From: Streptococcus cuniculipharyngis
Lineage (GTDB): Bacteria; Bacillota; Bacilli; Lactobacillales; Streptococcaceae
Assembly (NCBI RefSeq): GCF_007859195.1
Contig: NZ_VOHL01000001.1
Span: 1 to 64,000, forward strand
DNA length: 64,000 nucleotides
Direction of reading: 5' to 3'
The notes beneath the pieces are model-generated. The model was not told where the DNA came from. It did no database searches and saw only the letters and a list, made by a program, of their open reading frames with translations. Below are positions 17,974-58,600 of this stretch, piece after piece. Both the position numbers and the translations under genes were made by a program. Within the stretch, counting starts at the first letter, position 1, and each line of letters opens with the position of its first letter.

Positions 17974-19527
17974 ATGAAATTTACAGATTTAAACCTATCA
18001 GCAGAGATTTTATCTGCTGTTGAAAAAGCTGGCTTTGTTGAACCATCTCCGATTCAAGAAATGACCATTCCTTTGGCCCTTGCTGGCAAGGATGTCATCG
18101 GTCAAGCGCAGACAGGGACAGGAAAAACCGCAGCCTTTGGTTTGCCAACCTTGAACAAGATTCACACAGAGGATAATACCATTCAAGCCTTGATTATTGC
18201 TCCAACCCGTGAGTTGGCAGTGCAATGTCAGGAGGAACTTTTCCGTTTTGGGCGTGATAAGGGGGTCAAGGTACGGTCGGTTTATGGTGGCTCAAGTATT
18301 GAAAAACAAATCAAGGCCCTACGTTCTGGTGCTCATATCGTGGTTGGCACACCAGGTCGTTTGTTGGATTTAATCAAACGTAAGGCTTTGAAGTTGTCTG
18401 ATATTGAAACCTTGATTTTGGATGAGGCTGATGAAATGCTCAATATGGGCTTTTTGGAAGATATTGAGAGTATTATCAGCCGAGTGCCAGACAGCCGTCA
18501 AACCCTGCTCTTTTCAGCGACCATGCCAGAACCGATTAAGCGTATTGGCGTGACCTTTATGAAAGAACCTGAGCATGTTAAGATTGCGGCCAAAGAACTA
18601 ACGACGGAATTGGTGGACCAATATTATATCCGTGTGCGTGAGCAAGAAAAATTTGACACCATGACCCGTTTGATGGATGTTGACCAACCAGAATTAGCCA
18701 TTGTCTTCGGTCGGACCAAGCGTCGTGTGGACGAATTGACGCGTGGTTTGAAACTGCGTGGTTACCGTGCCGAGGGCATCCACGGTGATTTAGATCAGGG
18801 CAAACGCCTGCGTGTCCTTCGTGATTTCAAAAATGATGGTCTTGATATCCTTGTCGCTACCGATGTGGCGGCGCGTGGCTTGGACATTTCTGGGGTGACC
18901 CACGTTTACAACTATGATATTCCCCAAGACCCAGAAAGCTATGTTCACCGTATCGGACGGACAGGACGTGCCGGCAAACATGGACAGTCCATTACTTTTG
19001 TTTCACCAAATGAAATGGGCTACCTATCCATTATTGAAAATCTAACCAAGAAGCGGATGAAGGGCTTAAAACCAGCGACTGCTGAGGAAGCCTTCCAAGC
19101 TAAGAAAAAAGTCGCCTTGAAAAAAATTGCCCGTGATTTTGCCGATGAAAAGGTGCAGGCTAGTTTTGAGAAATTCAGGGCAGATGCCATCAAGTTAGCA
19201 AATGATTTTAGCCCAGAAGAGTTAGCCCTTTACATTCTTAATTTGACGGTTCAAGACCCAGATAGTCTGCCAGAAGTTGAGATTGCTCGTGAAAAACCGC
19301 TGCCATTTAAACCGTCAGGCAATGGGTTTGCGAATAAGGGGCGTGGAGGCAATAACAACCGGTCATTCAATCGTCAATCAGGGAAACGTGAGGGAGGTCG
19401 CCGAGATTTCAAACGTCGTTCCAACAAAAATTCCCGTGATTTTGACAATAAAGGCAACAAACGCCCACACCGCACCTCAAGTGAAAAGAAAAATGGCTTT
19501 GTTATCCGTAACAAGGGAGATAAATAA
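17974..19527 (+). CDS. cshA: DEAD-box ATP-dependent RNA helicase (CshA-type)
   Basis: A 517-residue DEAD-box helicase that unwinds RNA in mRNA decay and ribosome assembly, often cold-induced. Motifs appear in order: Q motif [10 protein letters not shown] near 24-33, Walker A AQTGTGKT near 45-52, DEAD in LDEADEML near 149-156, SAT in LLFSATMP, and [10 protein letters not shown] near 326-335. The last 90 residues are a basic, Gly/Arg/Asn-rich tail ([17 protein letters not shown]) typical of CshA RNA-binding extensions. The gene stands alone between a possible leader attenuator and a triple terminator array. Confidence 0.93.
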
Positions 19528-19650
19528 AAAGGTCCAGTGGACCTTTTTATCATTTTGCCCAAAAAAGGACAGCAAAATCAGGTCCGGTGGACCTTTTTAT
19601 CATTTTGCCTAAAAAAAGGACAGCAAACTCAGGTCCAGTGGACCTTTTTA
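19526..19650 (+). repeat. Tandem array of three terminator hairpins, 50-51-bp period (copy 2)
   Basis: GGTCC-A/G-GT-GGACC hairpins with T5 start at 19531, 19581 and 19632, at periods of 50 and 51. The spacers keep TTATCATTTTG and a second stem ATTTTGC/GCAAAAT (19550s to 19570s). The middle hairpin has a CGG loop variant. The array begins directly at the helicase stop codon, as copy 1 does behind gpmA. Confidence 0.85.
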
Positions 19651-19867
19651 TCATTTTGTCAAAAAGGAGAAGTAAAATCTAGGACTAAGGGATCATTTTA
19701 TTATGAATACTCATAATAAAAAGAATATTTGACTATGTTAGTATGGTTGATAATGATTAAACTATAACAATGAAGTCAGTGAACATCATAAATATTCTAT
19801 ACTTATGTGATAAATTAGCTAGGAGAATTTCGCTAATATTTGGTTTTTTCTAGAGTTTTTACAAACT
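19651..19867. other. AT-rich spacer before the restriction-modification operon
   Basis: These roughly 220 bases hold no gene I can support. The composition changes from moderate to clearly AT-rich at about 19680, which marks the left boundary of the accessory island. No inverted repeat, direct repeat or integrase remnant was seen. Confidence 0.5.
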
Positions 19868-19926: not shown

Positions 19927-21912
19927 ATGATAGATAATTTTTTTAAAGATAAAAATTTCAATCTTGAGCAGTTTACTGATAAAGAAATTCTAGCTCTTAA
20001 AAATCGAATTACCGAAAAAACTACCAAAACTGGAAAAATTTCGTATAACATCAAATGTTTTATTAGGGAAAAAAATGTTGCTTTAAAACCTGAAGAGTTG
20101 GTAAGACAGCTCTATTTGTACAAGCTGATTCATGATTATGATTATCCAGTGAATCAAATAGCAGTGGAATATAGTGTATCTTTTGGTCGTGAGAAAAAGC
20201 GTGCGGATATTGTTGTTTTTGATAAGCAAAATACAACAGCACCATATATCATTGTTGAAGTAAAAAAAGCCAAGTTAAAAGATGGAAAAGAGCAACTGAA
20301 AAGCTATTGTAATGCGACGGGTGCTCCGATTGGTGTTTGGACAAATGGGAAACAGATTTCTTTTTATAATCGTAAAGATCCCAATTATTTTGAAGATATT
20401 CCAAATATTCCTAAATATACTGAAAAATTATCTGATATTCTTAGTGAGCGTTGGAATATTGCAGACTTAATTCAAAACGATAAGCTGGTGACTGAGCGTA
20501 AAAGTCTGAAGGATCTCATTTTAGAAATGGAAGATGAAGTGTTGGCAAATGCTGGGGTCGATGTTTTTGAAGAAGTTTTCAAGTTAATTTTTACAAAACT
20601 TTATGATGAATTAGAAAGTACTCGAAATAAAACACGTCATCTGTCTTTTAGAAATTATGGAGATACAGATACGGAATTAAAAGATCGTATCCAGCAACTA
20701 TTTGTAAACGCCCAAAATAAGTGGGAAGGTGTTTTTGAAGAAAATGCGAAAATCATGCTAAGTTCATCCCACTTATCTGTTTGTGTGTCTAGTTTGCAAG
20801 ATGTTAAATTATTTAATTCTAATTTAGATGTTGTGGATGATGCTTTTGAGTATTTGATGAGTAAGTCAAGTAAGGGCGAAAAAGGTCAGTATTTTACACC
20901 ACGTTATGTCATTGATATGTGTGTTAAGATGCTTAATCCTACCAAAGATGAAACCATGATTGATACAGCAAGTGGTAGTTGTGGTTTTCCGGTTCATACA
21001 ATGTTTCATGTGTGGAAACAAATTTTAGACGAAAAAGGAATTAAACAGAGTCATTTATTTACTGCTGAAGAAAAACCAACGGAATGTGAAGATTATGTAA
21101 AATCAAAAGTTTTTGCTATTGATTTTGATGAAAAAGCTGTTCGAGTTTCTAGAACTTTGAATCTTATCGCTGGAGATGGGCAAACCAATGTTTTACATCT
21201 AAATACTTTAGATTATGAGCGTTGGGACGAAACTGTTCAACAAGAAGAGTGGACTGATACTTATAATCAAGGGTGGAAACGTCTCAAAAAACTTCGTCAA
21301 TCTAAAAATAGTAACTACGCATTTCAATTTGATGTTTTAATGGCAAATCCGCCTTTTGCAGGTGATATTAAGGAAAGTCGAATTATTACGAAATTTGAAT
21401 TAGGTAAAAATGCAAAAGGAAAATATCAAACTAAAGTTGGACGAGATATTCTATTCATAGAACGTAATTTGAACTTCTTAAAACCTGGTGGACGCATGGC
21501 AGTTGTTCTCCCTCAAGGACGCTTTAACAATTCTAGTGATAAGTATATTCGAGACTATATTGCCGAACATTGTCGTATTTTAGCAGTTGTTGGTCTGCAT
21601 GGCAATGTTTTTAAGCCACATACAGGAACGAAAACAAGCGTCTTATTTGTTCAAAAATGGGATGATGAACTATGTCCGAAAGTGGAGGATTATCCAATTT
21701 TTTTTGCTACCATGCAAGAACCAAGTAAAGATAATAGTGGTGATAAAATTTATCTCAAAGATGAAAATGGCTCTCCAATTTTAGATGAACATGGGCATCT
21801 GATTGTGAAACATGACCTCTATAATCATGATGGAAAAACACAAGATGGTATTGCTGAAGCTTTTATTGAATTTGCTAAAAAGGAAAAACTTTCTTTTGTG
21901 GGAAAGGATTAA
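19927..21912 (+). CDS. BcgI-like restriction-modification protein: HsdR-N nuclease fused to N6-adenine methyltransferase
   Basis: The 661-residue protein combines cleavage and modification. Residues about 40-150 form a type I R-protein N-terminal nuclease domain: Asp94 in RADIVVF, Glu111 and Lys113 in VEVKKA, and a Q-x3-Y (123-127), together a PD-(D/E)xK centre. Residues about 210-650 are an HsdM-type N6 methyltransferase with QYFTPR (321-326), the SAM motif DTASGSCGF (346-354) and catalytic NPPF (474-477). No helicase domain or hsdR gene is present. This R-M fusion with a separate S protein is the plan of type IIB/IIG enzymes such as BcgI. AT-rich codon use suggests transfer. Confidence 0.88.
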   Translation: MIDNFFKDKNFNLEQFTDKEILALKNRITEKTTKTGKISYNIKCFIREKNVALKPEELVRQLYLYKLIHDYDYPVNQIAVEYSVSFGREKKRADIVVFDKQNTTAPYIIVEVKKAKLKDGKEQLKSYCNATGAPIGVWTNGKQISFYNRKDPNYFEDIPNIPKYTEKLSDILSERWNIADLIQNDKLVTERKSLKDLILEMEDEVLANAGVDVFEEVFKLIFTKLYDELESTRNKTRHLSFRNYGDTDTELKDRIQQLFVNAQNKWEGVFEENAKIMLSSSHLSVCVSSLQDVKLFNSNLDVVDDAFEYLMSKSSKGEKGQYFTPRYVIDMCVKMLNPTKDETMIDTASGSCGFPVHTMFHVWKQILDEKGIKQSHLFTAEEKPTECEDYVKSKVFAIDFDEKAVRVSRTLNLIAGDGQTNVLHLNTLDYERWDETVQQEEWTDTYNQGWKRLKKLRQSKNSNYAFQFDVLMANPPFAGDIKESRIITKFELGKNAKGKYQTKVGRDILFIERNLNFLKPGGRMAVVLPQGRFNNSSDKYIRDYIAEHCRILAVVGLHGNVFKPHTGTKTSVLFVQKWDDELCPKVEDYPIFFATMQEPSKDNSGDKIYLKDENGSPILDEHGHLIVKHDLYNHDGKTQDGIAEAFIEFAKKEKLSFVGKD

Positions 21913-21941
21913 GCCCATTTAACCCTGCCAAATATCAGGCA

Positions 21942-24083
21942 TTGTTAGATGGGCTGGAAGTGAGTGAAATTAGTTTATCCGTTGTTGATAAAAATAAAGA
22001 TTGTAGATTTGATACTGACTTTTGGACAAAAGAACCAAAACGTAATCCACAATTAACATATATTAAAATAGGTGATTGCCTTTTAAAATCACAATATGGA
22101 ATTTCTATTTCTATGAATGAAATTGGAGATGGTATTCCAATTTATAGAATGAATGAAATTCATAATATGTTATGTGATTTTTCTGTATCAAAGTATGCAA
22201 ATGTATCAAATTTAGAGAAAGAAACCTTTTTATTAAAAGATAGAGATGTTTTGTTTAACAGAACAAATTCGTTTGAGTGGGTTGGGAGAACAGGTATTTT
22301 TTATCAGCAAGACGATAGTGATTTTATTTTTGCTTCTTATCTTGTGCGTTTTGTTCCAAATGAAGATATTATTTTACCTGAATACCTAACAGCATATTTA
22401 AATACGAAATATGGTATTTGGGACTTAAAAAGGCGGGCTAGACAATCTATTAACCAAACCAATATAAACCCAGAAGAGGTAAAAGAAACCTTTATTCCAT
22501 TACTTGATAGAGATTTTCAATTAAAAATAAAAGACTGCTTCGATAATGCAAAACTATCTTTGAAAAAATCTCAAAACATCTACATCGAAGCCGAAACTTT
22601 ATTGCTAGACAATCTTGGTTTAACTGATTTTCAAGCTATACAAAATCCTGTAAATATCAAATCGCTCAAAGATAGCTTTTTACAAACAGGGCGATTGGAT
22701 GCAGAGTTTTATCAACCCATTTATGAGCAATTAGAAAAATTTATTCAAACTCATTCAAATGGTTTTGAAAAATTAGGTAAAGTATGCCGTTTGCACGATG
22801 AGAATTACACGCCAAACGAAAACCAAGAATACGACTATATTGAGCTTTCCAATATCGGTAAATCAGGTGAAATTACAGGTAGTACAAAAGCATTAGGCAA
22901 AGACTTGCCATCTCGTGCTAGACGGAAAGTGCGAACAAATCAAGTGATGATTTCCAGCATTGAAGGCTCTTTGCAAAGTTGTGCAATTGTACCACCGCAC
23001 TATGATAATTCTTTATGTTCGACAGGATTTTATGTATTGTCATCTGATAAAATCAATGCAGAAACTTTATTGGTGTTGTTCAAATCATCACTTATGCAAC
23101 AGATTTTAAAGAAAAACTGTTCAGGAACGATTTTAACGGCAATCAATAAAGAGGACTTATTAAATATCCCGCTGCCGATTATTTCTCAAAATACGCAAGA
23201 AAAAATCGCTGAATATATCCGTCAAAGCAACGATTTACGTGAGCAAGCCCAACAGTTATTGACTGAAGCAAAAGCATCTGTTGAAAATGAAATCGAAAAC
23301 TCTGTGAAAGTTTCACGGGGGGGGGGGGGGGTAGAGATTGACTCTCTCCTTGCTAAAGCCCTCTATTATGAGCGCTTAGCAGAGTGGACACTCATAGAAT
23401 TGTTAATCGAGCAAAAAACAAGCAATGTCTCTGTTCAAACTTTATCACAATCATTTGGTATGAGTGGGCGTTTAGATGCTGAATATTATCAACCGAAATT
23501 TACACAACTTTTAGAAAGTATGGCTAAATTTGATTGTGTACGTTTAGGTGATATAGTAGACTTGTATAAATCAATTGAGCCAGGTTCACAAGCATATCAG
23601 AGTCAAGGAGTACCATTTGTGCGTGTATCAAATTTATCTAAATATGGTATTACAAAATCAGACAAGTTTTTAGATCCTGAATCCTTTAATGAAGCTATTC
23701 GTCCTAAAAGAGACACTATTTTATTATCTAAAGATGGGACAGTTGGGATTGCCTATCGGGTACCAGAAGATTTAGATGTGATTACATCAGGAGCGATTGT
23801 CCATTTATCTCTAAAAACAGATAGAGTGCTACCTGACTATCTTGCTTTAGTTATAAATTCGGCAGTAGTACAATTACAAGCAGAACGTGATGCAGGTGGT
23901 TCAATTATCCAGCATTGGAAACCGTCAGAGATTTTAGACGTGCGTATTCCAGTATTACCTAGAACCATTCAGCTAAGGATTAGTGAAAAAATTCAACAAA
24001 GTTTTACACTGAAAGCCAAAAGTGAAGAACTATTAGCTGAAGCTAAAAGGTTAGTAGAAAATGAAATTGAAAATATGAGGTAG
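21942..24083 (+). CDS. Three-unit specificity (S) protein with an internal poly-G tract
   Basis: The frame encodes 713 residues in three target-recognition units, each opened by a related motif: CRFDTDFW (near 22), GRLDAEFYQP (near 248) and GRLDAEYYQP (near 506). Each ends in a helical segment; those after units 2 and 3 are similar (LLTEAKASVENEIEN and LLAEAKRLVENEIEN). HsdS proteins normally have two units and about 400 residues. A run of 15 G encodes R-GGGG-V at 459-464, between units 2 and 3. The only canonical start is TTG 21942 with no clear ribosome site, while the frame is open further upstream (see findings). It probably dictates the DNA site of the methylase-nuclease. Confidence 0.85.
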   Translation: MLDGLEVSEISLSVVDKNKDCRFDTDFWTKEPKRNPQLTYIKIGDCLLKSQYGISISMNEIGDGIPIYRMNEIHNMLCDFSVSKYANVSNLEKETFLLKDRDVLFNRTNSFEWVGRTGIFYQQDDSDFIFASYLVRFVPNEDIILPEYLTAYLNTKYGIWDLKRRARQSINQTNINPEEVKETFIPLLDRDFQLKIKDCFDNAKLSLKKSQNIYIEAETLLLDNLGLTDFQAIQNPVNIKSLKDSFLQTGRLDAEFYQPIYEQLEKFIQTHSNGFEKLGKVCRLHDENYTPNENQEYDYIELSNIGKSGEITGSTKALGKDLPSRARRKVRTNQVMISSIEGSLQSCAIVPPHYDNSLCSTGFYVLSSDKINAETLLVLFKSSLMQQILKKNCSGTILTAINKEDLLNIPLPIISQNTQEKIAEYIRQSNDLREQAQQLLTEAKASVENEIENSVKVSRGGGGVEIDSLLAKALYYERLAEWTLIELLIEQKTSNVSVQTLSQSFGMSGRLDAEYYQPKFTQLLESMAKFDCVRLGDIVDLYKSIEPGSQAYQSQGVPFVRVSNLSKYGITKSDKFLDPESFNEAIRPKRDTILLSKDGTVGIAYRVPEDLDVITSGAIVHLSLKTDRVLPDYLALVINSAVVQLQAERDAGGSIIQHWKPSEILDVRIPVLPRTIQLRISEKIQQSFTLKAKSEELLAEAKRLVENEIENMR
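23317..23331 (+). repeat. Poly-G tract of 15 bases inside the S gene (phase-variable)
   Basis: Fifteen consecutive G follow TTTCAC. With 15 G the frame reads CGG GGG GGG GGG GGG GTA GAG and continues. With 14 G it reads TAG directly after the tract; with 16 or 13 G it reads GGT AGA GAT TGA. Every length that is not 15 modulo 3 therefore truncates the protein at about residue 463-467, after two units. Confidence 0.92.
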
Positions 24084-24085
24084 GT

Positions 24086-24718
24086 ATGTCTGGTAGTAGT
24101 CAAGATTTAAAAAAAGAATGGTTTGAAAAAGCAAGGATTGATTACCATTCACTATTTATTATGCTTTGGCTAAGTTGTAATAGCTGGTATAATTTTCATT
24201 ATTCTTTGACAAATGATAGAGAACATATTAATAAAATAAAGTCTGATCGTTCTTCTAACAATAAATTATACCAATCATTTGAGCGATTGTTTTTATCAGA
24301 TGATAAAGAAGGTGCTGATTTTAGGAATAATATTACCCAACTACACTATGCTTTAATACAAGCAGAGTTAGAGTATCGTGGAAATGATATTCCGAATGGT
24401 TATACTAAAATGATTTTTGAGAATTTACTAACTGATTTTAATAAGAAAACAGATAATACTAGCTACCAAAATGTGATTATTAGTGATGCGAGAACAAAAA
24501 CTGGAAAGTTAAAGAAAAAGTATAGTGATACTCATGATTTAGGTGACTTGGTTGTAGTAGAGGATTTAGGTATTCTTTTTGCGGGAATTTTTGAAATTAT
24601 TTATCAAGTCCGTTGTCATTTGGTACATGGTAGTTTAAAACCTAGTAAGGAAAATCATGCAGTAGTAAGATGTTGCTATTTAATCCTTTGGGATTGTTTA
24701 AAGGGGTTTTGTGAATAA
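24086..24718 (+). CDS. HEPN-motif protein of the restriction-modification operon
   Basis: A 210-residue, mostly helical, soluble protein starting two bases after the S stop codon, with GAGGTAGGT as ribosome site. Near the C-terminus lies YQVRCHLVHGS, in which Arg176 and His181 form the Rx4H motif of HEPN RNases, including the hydrophobic-H-G context seen in many HEPN proteins. I recognise no other family feature. HEPN proteins often act in defence as RNases or as partners of toxins. A role in the R-M system, for example as a back-up or assembly factor, is only inferred from the operon. Confidence 0.6.
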   Translation: MSGSSQDLKKEWFEKARIDYHSLFIMLWLSCNSWYNFHYSLTNDREHINKIKSDRSSNNKLYQSFERLFLSDDKEGADFRNNITQLHYALIQAELEYRGNDIPNGYTKMIFENLLTDFNKKTDNTSYQNVIISDARTKTGKLKKKYSDTHDLGDLVVVEDLGILFAGIFEIIYQVRCHLVHGSLKPSKENHAVVRCCYLILWDCLKGFCE

Positions 24719-26068: not shown

Positions 26069-26809
26069 ATGTTTTATGCCTATCTTCGAGGTCTGGTAGT
26101 GTTTTTACTGTGGATTATCAATGGCAATGTCCACTATCATAATCAGGACAAGATTCCTGACCAGGATGAAAATTATATCTTAGTTGCCCCCCATAGGACT
26201 TGGTGGGACCCTGTCTATATGGCTTTTGCCGCCCGACCTAAACAGTTTATTTTCATGGCTAAGAAAGAATTGTTTACCAATCGGATTTTTGGTTGGTGGA
26301 TCCGTATGTGTGGAGCCTTTCCGATTGATCGTGACAATCCAGGCCAAGAAGCCATTCGCTACCCTGTCAATATGCTGAAAAAAAGCCAACGCTCGCTGAT
26401 TATGTTCCCTAGTGGTAGTCGTCATTCCAGTGATGTTAAGGGGGGGGTAGCTGTGATTGCCAAGATGGCTAAGGTTCGGATTATGCCTTCGGCCTATCTG
26501 GGACCTTTGTCGATCAAAGGGCTTTTATCTCGTGAGCGGATTGACATGAACTTTGGTGCCCCTATTGATATTTCAGATATTAAGCGGATGGATAATGCAG
26601 GGGTGGAAGAGGTTGCCAGACGGATTCAAGAGGCCTTTGACCAACTAGATGAGGAAAATCAAAGCTACCATAATGCTAAAAAACCAAGTGTTTTTTGGTA
26701 TCTTGTTCGCATTCCAGCAGCCTTAGTGGCTATTGTCTTGGTTATTTTGACCTTGATGTTTAGTTGGCTAGCTAGTTTCGTTTGGGATCCTGATAAACAC
26801 CGCAAGTAA
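26069..26809 (+). CDS. plsC: 1-acyl-sn-glycerol-3-phosphate acyltransferase
   Basis: PlsC adds the second acyl chain in phosphatidic acid synthesis at the membrane. The 246 residues contain the acyltransferase motif HRTWWD (Hx4D, near 43-48), FPSGSRHSS near 111-119, and a hydrophobic C-terminal segment (PAALVAIVLVILTLMFSWLA). The N-terminal GLVVFLLWIIN is a second membrane contact. A run of eight G (26440-26447) codes K-G-G-V in the middle of the gene and may be prone to slippage. Terminators follow, so it is monocistronic. Confidence 0.92.
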   Translation: MFYAYLRGLVVFLLWIINGNVHYHNQDKIPDQDENYILVAPHRTWWDPVYMAFAARPKQFIFMAKKELFTNRIFGWWIRMCGAFPIDRDNPGQEAIRYPVNMLKKSQRSLIMFPSGSRHSSDVKGGVAVIAKMAKVRIMPSAYLGPLSIKGLLSRERIDMNFGAPIDISDIKRMDNAGVEEVARRIQEAFDQLDEENQSYHNAKKPSVFWYLVRIPAALVAIVLVILTLMFSWLASFVWDPDKHRK

Positions 26810-56440: not shown

Positions 56441-58600
56441 CTAAATCACACAGCTTTCGCATTGATTTGAGCCAACCTCTTCGCCATCATCAGTAAAGGT
56501 ACGGATGTAGTAGATGGATTTGATGCCCTTGTTAAAGGCATAGTGGCGAAGAATTGACAGGTCACGAGTGGTTTGTTTGGTTTCCGTTTTCCATTCGTAA
56601 ATGCCCATCGGAATTTCACTACGCATAAAGAGGGTCATGGATAGGCCTTGGTCAACGTGTTCAGTGGCTGCCGCATAGACATCGATGACTTGACGCATGT
56701 CCATGTCATAGGCAGATGTATAGTAGGGAATGGTGTCGGTTGAAAGACCATTGGCAGGGTAGTAGATTTTACCGATTTTCTTCTCTTGCCGTTCTTCAAT
56801 CCGTTGTGTAATGGGATGGATAGAGGCTGAGCAGTCATTGATATAGCTGATTGACCCATTAGGGGCAACGGCTAGACGGTTTTGATGGTAAAGACCGTGG
56901 GCCATAACAGCTTGACGCAAGTTTATCCAGTCCTCAGCCTGCGGGATAAAGTGACCGGCAAAGAGTTCTTTAACCAAGTCTGATTGAGGGACAAATTGAC
57001 CAGTGATATACTTGTCAAAATAGCTTCCATCGGCATAGGTTGATTTATCAAAATTGACAAAGGTTTTGCCCCGTTCACGAGCGATATTGTTGGACTCAAC
57101 CAAGGTCCAATAGTTCATCAACATAAAGTAGATGCTAGTAAATTCGATGGACTCTGGGCTACCATAGGTCATGTGATGTTGGGCAAAATAACTATGCAAG
57201 CCCATGGCTCCAAGCCCGATGGTATGGGCTTGGTCATTGCCATTTTTGATGGTCGGCACAGCCTCAATGCTTGAAGCGTCAGTGACAAAGGTCAAGGCCC
57301 TAGTCATGGTGCGAATAGAGCGGCCAAAATCAGGTGAGGTCATCATGTTCAGCACATTGGTTGAACCAAGATTACATGAAATGTCTGTTCCTAGCTTGAC
57401 AAATTCTTGCGCATCATTGATTTGACTAGGTGTTTGCACTTGGAGAATTTCTGAGCAGAGGTTACTCATGATGATTTTACCATCAATAGGACTGGTTCTG
57501 TTGGCGGTATCAACATTGATAATATAAGGATAGCCTGATTCTTGTTGGAGTTTGGAAATCTCTGTTTCTAAATCACGGGCCTTAATCTTGGTCTTAGTGA
57601 TATTGGGATTAGCCACCAATTCATCGTACTTGCTGCTAATGTCAATATAACTGAAAGGCACACCGTATTCACGTTCAATGGAGTAGGGGCTAAACAGATA
57701 CATGTCCTCATTATTACGAGCCAGTTCGTAGAATTTATCAGGGACAGTAATGCCTAGGGAGAGGGTTTTCACACGGATTTTTTCATCAGCATTTTCCTTT
57801 TTGGTAGAAAGGAAGTTGAGAATATCAGGGTGAAAAACATCCAAGTAAACCACGCCAGCCCCTTGGCGTTGGCCCAGCTGATTAGAATAAGAGAAACTAT
57901 CCTCAAAGAGTTTCATGACAGGAACAACCCCGCTGGCTGCTCCGGCAAAGCCCTTGATAGGAGCACCGGCCTCACGCAGATTGCTTAGTGAGATACCGAC
58001 ACCCCCCCCGATACGGGATAATTGCAGGGCTGAATTGATGGAGCGACCGATGGCATTCATGTCGTCAGTCACTTGAATGAGGAAACAAGACACCAATTCG
58101 CCACGGCGGCTGCGACCGGCATTGAGGAAACTTGGGGTGGCGGGTTGATAGCGCTGATTAATCATTTCCATGGCCAAGTCACGCGCCAATTCTTCATTGC
58201 CATCAGCAAAATAAAGAGCATTAAAGAGGACCCGGTCTTCAATACTTTCGAGATAATAATGGCCATCATTGGTTTTGAGGGCATATTGCTGGTAGAATTT
58301 ATAGGCCGCCATAAAGGACTTAAAGCGGAAGTTTTCATTCTTGAGAGCTTGAGCCAATTCTTCGATAAATTCAGGGCGATAGGCTTGAATAAAAGCTTCT
58401 TCCAAGTAGTCGTGCTCTAGTAAATAGGCAATTTTGTCGCTAATAGTAGCAAATGACTTGGTGTTTGGCAGAACATTCTCATGAAAGAAGGCTTTGAGAG
58501 CCTCTCTATCCTTGTGGAGAGGAATTTGCCCATTAACAGGGCGGTTAATTTCATTGTTGAGACGGAAATAGGATACGTCGGTCAGATTTTTAAGACTCAT
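56441..58600 (-). CDS. nrdE: Ribonucleotide reductase class Ib alpha subunit NrdE
   Basis: NrdE is the catalytic subunit that reduces ribonucleoside diphosphates. The 719 residues have LVSCFLIQVTDD with the first redox Cys near 178, NLCSEILQ with the thiyl-radical Cys near 391, and the C-terminal redox pair QCESC at 713-717 that passes electrons from NrdH. A GGGGGGGG run (58003-58011 region) encodes IGGGVGIS in the substrate-binding part and is a possible slippage site. It overlaps nrdI by 11 bases. Confidence 0.96.
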   Translation of the reverse strand: MSLKNLTDVSYFRLNNEINRPVNGQIPLHKDREALKAFFHENVLPNTKSFATISDKIAYLLEHDYLEEAFIQAYRPEFIEELAQALKNENFRFKSFMAAYKFYQQYALKTNDGHYYLESIEDRVLFNALYFADGNEELARDLAMEMINQRYQPATPSFLNAGRSRRGELVSCFLIQVTDDMNAIGRSINSALQLSRIGGGVGISLSNLREAGAPIKGFAGAASGVVPVMKLFEDSFSYSNQLGQRQGAGVVYLDVFHPDILNFLSTKKENADEKIRVKTLSLGITVPDKFYELARNNEDMYLFSPYSIEREYGVPFSYIDISSKYDELVANPNITKTKIKARDLETEISKLQQESGYPYIINVDTANRTSPIDGKIIMSNLCSEILQVQTPSQINDAQEFVKLGTDISCNLGSTNVLNMMTSPDFGRSIRTMTRALTFVTDASSIEAVPTIKNGNDQAHTIGLGAMGLHSYFAQHHMTYGSPESIEFTSIYFMLMNYWTLVESNNIARERGKTFVNFDKSTYADGSYFDKYITGQFVPQSDLVKELFAGHFIPQAEDWINLRQAVMAHGLYHQNRLAVAPNGSISYINDCSASIHPITQRIEERQEKKIGKIYYPANGLSTDTIPYYTSAYDMDMRQVIDVYAAATEHVDQGLSMTLFMRSEIPMGIYEWKTETKQTTRDLSILRHYAFNKGIKSIYYIRTFTDDGEEVGSNQCESCVI

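What the first reader, a model, noticed from the sequence alone, without database searches (positions are those of the whole stretch)
23317..23331. Poly-G tract that toggles a specificity subunit between two and three recognition units
Seen: 15 G lie in frame exactly between target-recognition units 2 and 3 of the S protein. Loss or gain of one G gives a stop at once (TAG directly after the tract with 14 G; TGA three codons later with 13 or 16 G). The truncated product, about 463 residues, ends just after the VENEIEN helix that also ends unit 3, so it looks like a complete two-unit protein. Known: long homopolymer tracts slip, and poly-G in the HsdS of NgoAV in Neisseria changes specificity. 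Inference: this is a phase-variable switch between two specificities, not only on/off. Such a tract in a streptococcal type IIB/IIG system is, to my knowledge, unusual.
Basis: partly seen in the sequence, partly recalled or inferred. Interest (0 to 1): 0.93.

Follow-up and report, generated by a model that had tools for sequence, protein, structure and literature searches.

The report
Repeat-gated third DNA-recognition module
A run of 15 Gs in a Streptococcus DNA-defence gene sits exactly where gaining or losing one G cuts the encoded protein from three DNA-reading modules to two, and relatives in distant bacteria carry different slippery repeats at the same spot in both states, so the run likely lets cells flip which DNA sequences they mark and would attack.

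Summary
The tract is real: 15 G at 23317-23331, in frame, the longest G/C run in this 1.51 Mb genome (next: 10). 15 G reads into unit 3; 13, 14, 16 and 17 G stop within three codons of the tract. The gene is the S subunit of a two-gene RM+S system (nuclease-methylase fusion plus S; BsaXI/BcgI-like, no adjacent HsdR). The switch is not a local oddity. Of 82 fetched RM relatives, 9 have a third unit, and all 9 carry a simple repeat at this joint: G, C, AG or AGAC. Seven are truncated, 2 fused (3 of 10 fused with the window). Of 65 two-unit relatives, 1 has any repeat near the joint, past its stop. One lineage (with a Leyella stercorea record) shows all three frames in near-identical proteins. 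Unit 1 fits the first-slot profile; units 2 and 3 both fit the second-slot profile. The fused form would thus carry two alternative partners for unit 1, so slippage likely adds or swaps a recognition sequence rather than turning the system off. The specificity change is untested. H. pylori has close precedents, so this is a new variant of a known kind.

The parts
19927..21912 (+). RM subunit, 661 aa: N-terminal HSDR_N_2 nuclease domain with D94...E111-x-K113, and N6-adenine methylase with NPPF motif
   Evidence: Pfam PF13588, PF02384, PF07669; D94, E111, K113 and N474-F477 invariant in the 10 aligned RM proteins; PADLOC PDLC03034 at 1156 bits. That D/E/K are the catalytic residues is recalled.
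21942..24083 (+). S (specificity) gene, 713 aa from TTG 21942 in the 15-G phase; frame open upstream of 21912, so the start codon is inferred
   Evidence: Methylase_S PF01420
21912..22652 (+). Unit 1 (first-slot TRD and connector helix)
   Evidence: slot-1 profile 219 vs slot-2 52 bits
22653..23309 (+). Unit 2 (second-slot TRD and connector helix ending VENEIEN)
   Evidence: slot-2 profile 240 vs slot-1 86 bits
23317..23331 (+). G15 tract, the switch; encodes R-GGGG-V in a loop predicted with low confidence
   Evidence: AF2 pLDDT below 50 at residues 465-472
23332..23334 (+). TAG directly after the tract, used with 14 or 17 G
23339..23341 (+). TGA used with 13 or 16 G
23332..23423 (+). Linker between tract and unit 3, mostly a predicted helix
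   Evidence: helix 473-498 in AF2 model
23424..24080 (+). Unit 3 (a further second-slot TRD, the most conserved unit among three-unit systems)
   Evidence: slot-2 profile 239 vs slot-1 99 bits; mean pairwise identity 64% vs 35% (unit 1) and 49% (unit 2) in 10 systems
23257..23299 (+). 43-nt direct repeat, copy 1 (end of unit 2)
24031..24073 (+). 43-nt direct repeat, copy 2 (end of unit 3), 77% identical
24086..24718 (+). 210-aa ORF with HEPN-like R-x4-H motif (RCHLVHG), likely third gene of the operon
   Evidence: homologs near S in 14 of the RM-relative loci; R, H and G of the motif invariant in 13 aligned sequences; no Pfam, NCBIfam, PADLOC or PHROGs hit for the window protein

Best explanation
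The G15 tract lies in the hinge of an S gene so that 15 G encodes three recognition units while one G more or fewer ends the protein after two, and replication slippage there is predicted to switch the partner RM enzyme between one recognition sequence and an added or replaced second one. Shown by sequence: the three reading frames, the one-plus-two slot make-up, and the recurrence of slippery repeats at this joint in both phases among relatives. Inferred: in the short phase units 1 and 2 pair, as in ordinary two-unit S proteins, to read one bipartite site. In the long phase unit 3, a second-slot unit like unit 2, competes for pairing with unit 1 (or pairs with unit 2), so a second site is methylated, and cut if unmethylated, instead of or beside the first. 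Cells of one clone would thus hold different methylation patterns and restriction ranges. Commitment: specificity gain or switch rather than ON/OFF.
For: Frames. A repeat at the joint in 9 of 9 three-unit relatives, of four kinds (G, C, AG, AGAC), against 1 of 65 two-unit relatives, where it lies past the stop. A profile search of the downstream frames found a complete third unit in the same 9 loci and no others. The joint repeat is the only one, at the thresholds used, in each of 10 S genes. Both phases occur: 3 of 10 fused, 7 of 10 truncated. Near-identical natural proteins in different phases: P0020 (465 aa, ends GGG) identical over 450 aa to P0002 (715 aa); P0275 (ends GGVK) 1 difference in 449 and P0278 (ends GGG) 0 in 338 from their closest three-unit proteins; P0109 and P0114 differ only by one glycine at the tract. 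Slot profiles: unit 1 first slot in 10 of 10, units 2 and 3 second slot in 10 of 10 each. Unit-3-type TRDs (at least 40% identity) are the second unit in 30 of 65 two-unit relatives. The tract region is a low-confidence loop between helices. Two other relatives (L098, L109) have S frames about 245 aa longer without a repeat, but that extension is DUF6577, not a TRD. Precedents: a repeat-gated extra TRD changes specificity of HpyAXVI/Hpy99XIV, and three-TRD JHP1422 gives two motifs (PMC3936762, passages); Type IIB S units can be rearranged to new specificity (PMC9159934, abstract).
Against: No methylome or reads: neither slippage in this strain nor any recognition sequence was measured. The near-identical pairs are mostly metagenomic protein records, so assembly errors in homopolymers could mimic some phases; the AG and AGAC loci are less open to that. 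P0278 has an odd N-terminus and may be a contig fragment. The three-unit model has pTM 0.58, so unit arrangement is not resolved. Loss of unit 3 could also be neutral, or unit 3 could modulate activity instead of specificity. The slot profiles were trained on units located by similarity to units 1-3, which is partly circular, and their 126-of-126 control used the training units. Some tracts are short (C8, G8, G9), where slippage rates may be low.
Confidence: 0.72

Rival explanations
1. The tract is a phase switch, but unit 3 is needed for activity, so the short phase is OFF (or the long phase is misfolded and OFF).
For: ON/OFF is the usual outcome of coding repeats (established knowledge); a BcgI-like H. 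pylori S gene has a poly-G whose 13-G form prevents full translation (PMC3936762, passage).
Against: Two units are the S architecture of 65 of the 74 readable relatives, and the truncations in all 10 systems fall after unit 2. The joint holds the only repeat of each gene, whereas an OFF switch could lie anywhere upstream.
Confidence: 0.14
2. RNA polymerase or ribosome slippage on the long G run makes both products at once, so the tract sets a ratio of isoforms rather than a heritable switch.
For: Slippage bypass on homopolymers is documented (PMC3812077, start of the abstract seen in the listing); G15 is long.
Against: The same joint uses AG and AGAC repeats in L043, L065 and L036, where such slippage is not expected; natural genes and proteins are found in different phases.
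Confidence: 0.07
3. Unit 3 is made as a separate half-S protein in the truncated phase and forms its own complexes.
For: Half-S proteins are proposed to work as dimers in other systems (PMC3936762, passages); unit 3 is intact in all 7 truncated loci.
Against: No shared start site: after the tract some loci (L036, L089) offer only TTG codons in the unit-3 frame; the L101 gene, which is in the fused phase, has none before unit 3 begins.
Confidence: 0.04
4. The tract is neutral: a chance homopolymer in a dispensable linker, or an assembly length error.
For: Exact length rests on one draft assembly (14 contigs).
Against: Rarity of such runs, four repeat types at the joint in 9 of 9 three-unit relatives versus 1 of 65 two-unit ones, and intact unit 3 in truncated loci.
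Confidence: 0.03

Closest known systems
Type IIG HpyAXVI / Hpy99XIV (HP1353-HP1354, JHP1272), H. pylori
   Same: A second homopolymer decides whether an additional C-terminal TRD-like domain is translated; adding it changed the methylated motif experimentally (PMC3936762, passages).
   Different: Single-chain enzyme with a portion of a TRD added; no separate S subunit, and a first tract acts as ON/OFF.
Type I S subunit JHP1422 (M.Hpy99XV), three TRDs, H. pylori
   Same: Three consecutive TRDs in one S protein; two recognition sites methylated (PMC3936762, passages).
   Different: TRD2 and TRD3 identical; variants differed by TRD and helix rearrangement in the passages read, not by a repeat at the joint. 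Here units 2 and 3 share 31% identity.
NgoAV HsdS, Neisseria gonorrhoeae
   Same: Poly-G in hsdS toggles truncated and fused S with different specificities (PMC9577141, passages).
   Different: Type I with HsdR; one versus two TRDs.
Type IIB BsaXI and BcgI-like HP1471/JHP1364
   Same: RM fusion plus separate S; RM matches RM.BsaXI (1.5e-26), S matches S.BsaXI (1.2e-5; Foldseek 5.1e-18), though Type I S subunits score slightly better for S; poly-G in the H. pylori S gene.
   Different: RM here is 661 aa versus 916; two TRDs in BsaXI; the H. pylori poly-G is described as preventing full translation.
MADS (MAD2/MAD5)
   Same: RM and S match MAD2 (329.7 bits) and MAD5 (202.6 bits).
   Different: Both far below the curated cut-offs of 720 and 400; the other neighbours were not scanned for further MADS genes.

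Membership tests
Repeat-driven phase-variable gene | Hypermutable simple repeat inside the coding frame, with stops in the other frames | tested here: met
   Repeat and frames. Hypermutability itself is inferred from length and type.
Repeat-driven phase-variable gene | Different repeat lengths or frames in otherwise near-identical genes | tested here: met
   In relatives only, at protein level; not in the window's own strain or species
Repeat-driven phase-variable gene | Observed reversible switching in a clone | not testable with these tools
   no reads or cultures
Type IIB (BcgI/BsaXI-like) | Nuclease and methylase fused in one RM subunit | tested here: met
   HSDR_N_2 + N6_Mtase in one ORF; D94, E111, K113 invariant in 10 aligned proteins; activity untested
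Type IIB (BcgI/BsaXI-like) | Separate S subunit with two TRDs | tested here: inconclusive
   Separate S met; two units in the short phase, three in the long
Type IIB (BcgI/BsaXI-like) | Bipartite site with cleavage on both sides | not testable with these tools
   needs purified enzyme
Type I R-M | HsdR translocase beside M and S | tested here: not met
   The one TIGR00348 (hsdR) match of the genome lies on contig C9, near other S frames, not at this locus
MADS | MAD2 and MAD5 above curated cut-offs | tested here: not met
   329.7 of 720 and 202.6 of 400 bits
NgoAV-like specificity switch | Two S forms give different methylated motifs | not testable with these tools
   methylome needed

The most novel reading that the evidence does not exclude
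A widespread class of RM+S systems carries a built-in spare second-slot recognition unit behind a slippery hinge. Four kinds of repeat (G, C, AG, AGAC) occupy the same joint in different phyla, and slippage adds a second methylation and restriction specificity while keeping the first. It is an add-a-target switch, not ON/OFF and not recombination shuffling, and the spare unit is the conserved member while the two standing units diversify.
Probability: 0.5. Interest if true: 0.82.

Novelty: new variant of a known kind. Interest (0 to 1): 0.72.

Why it matters
If true, a clone can hold subpopulations that mark and cut different DNA without losing protection, because the two-unit core stays in frame in every phase. 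Three-unit genes were read in Streptococcus, Parvimonas, Pasteurellaceae, Moraxella and Bacteroidales, and truncated proteins ending at the glycine run bear Neisseria and Capnocytophaga names, so this could be a common source of epigenetic and phage-resistance diversity in host-associated bacteria. It makes a concrete question testable: what a third TRD does in an S subunit, using natural allele pairs that differ almost only at the tract. Gene callers would likely list truncated members as ordinary two-TRD S genes followed by a remnant.

Tried and rejected
Searched for a second full-length copy in the genus: 47 of 284 genomes have some S match, but only the own genome has a full-length one; the next best covers one unit at 49%. 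Considered MADS membership: below cut-offs. Considered Type I: hsdR lies elsewhere. Considered the third unit as a separately translated half-S: no shared start. Considered unit 3 as a non-recognition domain: it fits the second-slot TRD profile in 10 of 10. Tested whether any relative has a third unit without a repeat: two long S frames (L098, L109) turned out to end in DUF6577 instead. Viral scan: 3 RM relatives, no third unit in the 2 readable; plasmids and phages gave 2 and 1 records at 60-80% identity, not followed. A search of 140 genomes of the Mannheimia genome's family added 2 genomes with matches to the two-unit region only (L131 has two units; L132 was not read). The HEPN-like ORF's fold was not confirmed: no PDB match at E 0.001, a weak Pfam HEPN hit in 1 of 13 members at E 0.12, nothing on plasmids. 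One paper search was uninformative. No description of a repeat-gated third TRD in this RM+S family appeared in the listings of searches; that library lacks most subscription papers, including the SSR survey cited as ref. 14 of PMC7394358 (passages), which I did not read. The BsaXI structure paper PMC11997821 was seen only in a listing.

Loci dropped before counts: 8 of 82 (L071, L072, L074, L077, L080, L085, L088, L115) because the second unit could not be placed; L118 left out because its RM match is cut. Protein searches scored only the roughly 8,000 candidates sharing most words and list 120 each, so counts of short and long proteins there are not frequencies.

Full report
What is there. 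The window holds 15 G at 23317-23331 inside the ORF that ends at 24083. In the 15-G frame the S protein has three units; with 14 or 17 G it ends at TAG directly after the tract, with 13 or 16 G at TGA three codons on. The run is exceptional: five G/C runs of 8 or more exist in the whole 1.51 Mb assembly (15, 10, 9, 8, 8), and the tract is the sole simple repeat of the S gene at the thresholds used.

The system. Upstream lies a 661-aa RM protein with HSDR_N_2 nuclease and N6-adenine methylase domains. D94, E111, K113 and the NPPF motif are invariant in the 10 RM proteins aligned. Its best match among solved chains is RM.BsaXI; the S protein and its model resemble Type I S subunits and S.BsaXI. 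No HsdR is adjacent; the genome's one hsdR match sits on another contig near other S frames. It is thus an RM+S system like Type IIB, with cleavage untested. It looks inserted: in relatives G002 and G277 the helicase and methyltransferase genes that flank it here lie about 0.4-0.5 kb apart. No other of 284 genus genomes has a full-length S match. Gene names of these neighbours are recalled from sequence, not from a search.

The family-level test. Mapping the three window units onto the DNA downstream gave 9 loci with a third unit, 65 with two, and 8 that could not be placed. A profile search of the downstream reading frames found a complete third unit in the same 9 and no others (L038, L071 and L099 show extra pieces only because a unit is split). 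All 9 carry a simple repeat at the joint: Parvimonas parva (AGAC)13, a Moraxella MAG (AG)11, Moraxella lacunata (AG)12, two Bacteroidales MAGs C8, Rodentibacter rarus G10, Mannheimia haemolytica G10, Xylanibacter caecicola G8, Phocaeicola coprocola G9. Of the 65 two-unit loci, one has a repeat between 45 nt before and 150 nt after the second unit's end, a T8 past the stop codon. In each of the 10 three-unit genes the joint repeat is the only one found. Two loci with S frames about 245 aa longer (L098, L109) and no repeat end in DUF6577, not in a TRD. In each of the 10 genes one frame reads into unit 3 and the other two stop soon after unit 2. The window, M. lacunata and X. caecicola are in the fused phase, the other 7 truncated, close to the one third expected if phase is random.

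Phases in near-identical proteins. Protein searches returned pairs that differ essentially only in phase. P0020 (465 aa, ending GGG) equals P0002 (715 aa) over 450 aa. In one lineage (one record is named Leyella stercorea, P0247), three-unit proteins with 2, 4 or 5 glycines at the tract (P0064, P0076, P0070) stand beside P0275, which ends GGVK (1 difference in 449 from P0070, 2 from P0064), and P0278, which ends GGG (0 in 338 from P0064 and P0076): all three frames. P0109 and P0114 differ in nothing but one glycine. These are protein records, many metagenomic, so assembly error cannot be fully excluded; P0278 starts oddly and may be partial.

What the third unit is. Profiles built from 62 first and 64 second units of two-unit S proteins assign unit 1 to the first slot and units 2 and 3 to the second slot in 10 of 10 systems each; the training units themselves were assigned 126 of 126, which is an optimistic control. 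In 30 of 65 two-unit relatives the second unit is of the unit-3 type, in 13 of the unit-2 type, in 22 neither, at 40% identity. Among the 10 three-unit systems unit 3 is the most conserved (mean pairwise identity 64%, against 49% and 35%). The fused protein therefore has one first-slot unit and two alternative second-slot units. The AlphaFold model (mean pLDDT 81.6, pTM 0.58) puts the tract in a low-confidence loop between the unit-2 connector helix and a linker helix, a place likely to tolerate glycine-number changes.

Mechanism and status of each step. Shown: tract, frames, family recurrence, coexistence of phases in natural sequences, slot assignment. Inferred: replication slippage as the source; activity of both forms; pairing of unit 3 with unit 1 or 2; change of methylated motif. 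Precedents make the last steps plausible: H. pylori HpyAXVI and Hpy99XIV change motif when a second homopolymer lets an extra TRD be translated, and the three-TRD JHP1422 methylates two motifs (PMC3936762, passages); NgoAV swaps motifs by poly-G length (PMC9577141, passages); BsaXI units can be deleted, duplicated and permuted with new or retained specificity (PMC9159934, abstract and outline); three TRDs arising by recombination at repeats are described in PMC3077401 (passages). Transcriptional slippage as the common mechanism is made less likely by the AG and AGAC loci.

Novelty. Specificity switching by a homopolymer and three-TRD S proteins are each known, and 7.9% of Type I hsdS genes are reported to contain simple repeats (PMC7394358 citing its ref. 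14, passages). The combination seen here (a repeat at one fixed joint, gating a spare second-slot TRD in an RM+S system, in several phyla with four repeat types) was not found in the searches listed under Tried and rejected. I file it as a new variant of a known kind.

A third gene. The 210-aa ORF at 24086-24718 has homologs near S in 14 of the RM-relative loci (the L089 and L041 copies are broken or cut), with an invariant R-x4-H-G motif in the 13 aligned sequences, a hallmark recalled for HEPN proteins. The fold search gave no support, so this label is tentative.

Noticed in passing
24086-24718: 210-aa ORF two bases after the S stop, with C-terminal RCHLVHG (HEPN-like R-x4-H); homologs sit near S in 14 RM-relative loci though no library searched names it. 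Fold search gave no PDB match.
   Followed up: partly
26440-26447: A second poly-G (8 G) inside an acyltransferase-like ORF (26069-26809; name recalled), one of only five G/C runs of 8 or more in the genome; another, C8, lies at 58002-58009.
   Followed up: no
23257-23299 and 24031-24073: 43-nt direct repeats, 77% identical, bracket unit 3; recombination between them would remove it.
   Followed up: no
21900-21945: The RM stop (21910-21912) lies inside the open S frame, and in several relatives (L082, L099, L106, L111) RM and S read as one ORF; the true S start is unclear.
   Followed up: no
G000:C9:21662-26855: The same genome has an hsdR match near two S frames (403 and 221 aa), apparently a separate Type I locus that may itself vary by recombination.
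   Followed up: no
L098:9432-10169 and L109:3972-4709: In two relatives the S frame runs on into a DUF6577 domain instead of a third TRD, with no repeat at the joint.
   Followed up: partly
19527-19680: Three tandem copies of a sequence like AGGTCCAGTGGACCTTTTTATCATTTTG follow the helicase gene, possible repeated terminators.
   Followed up: no
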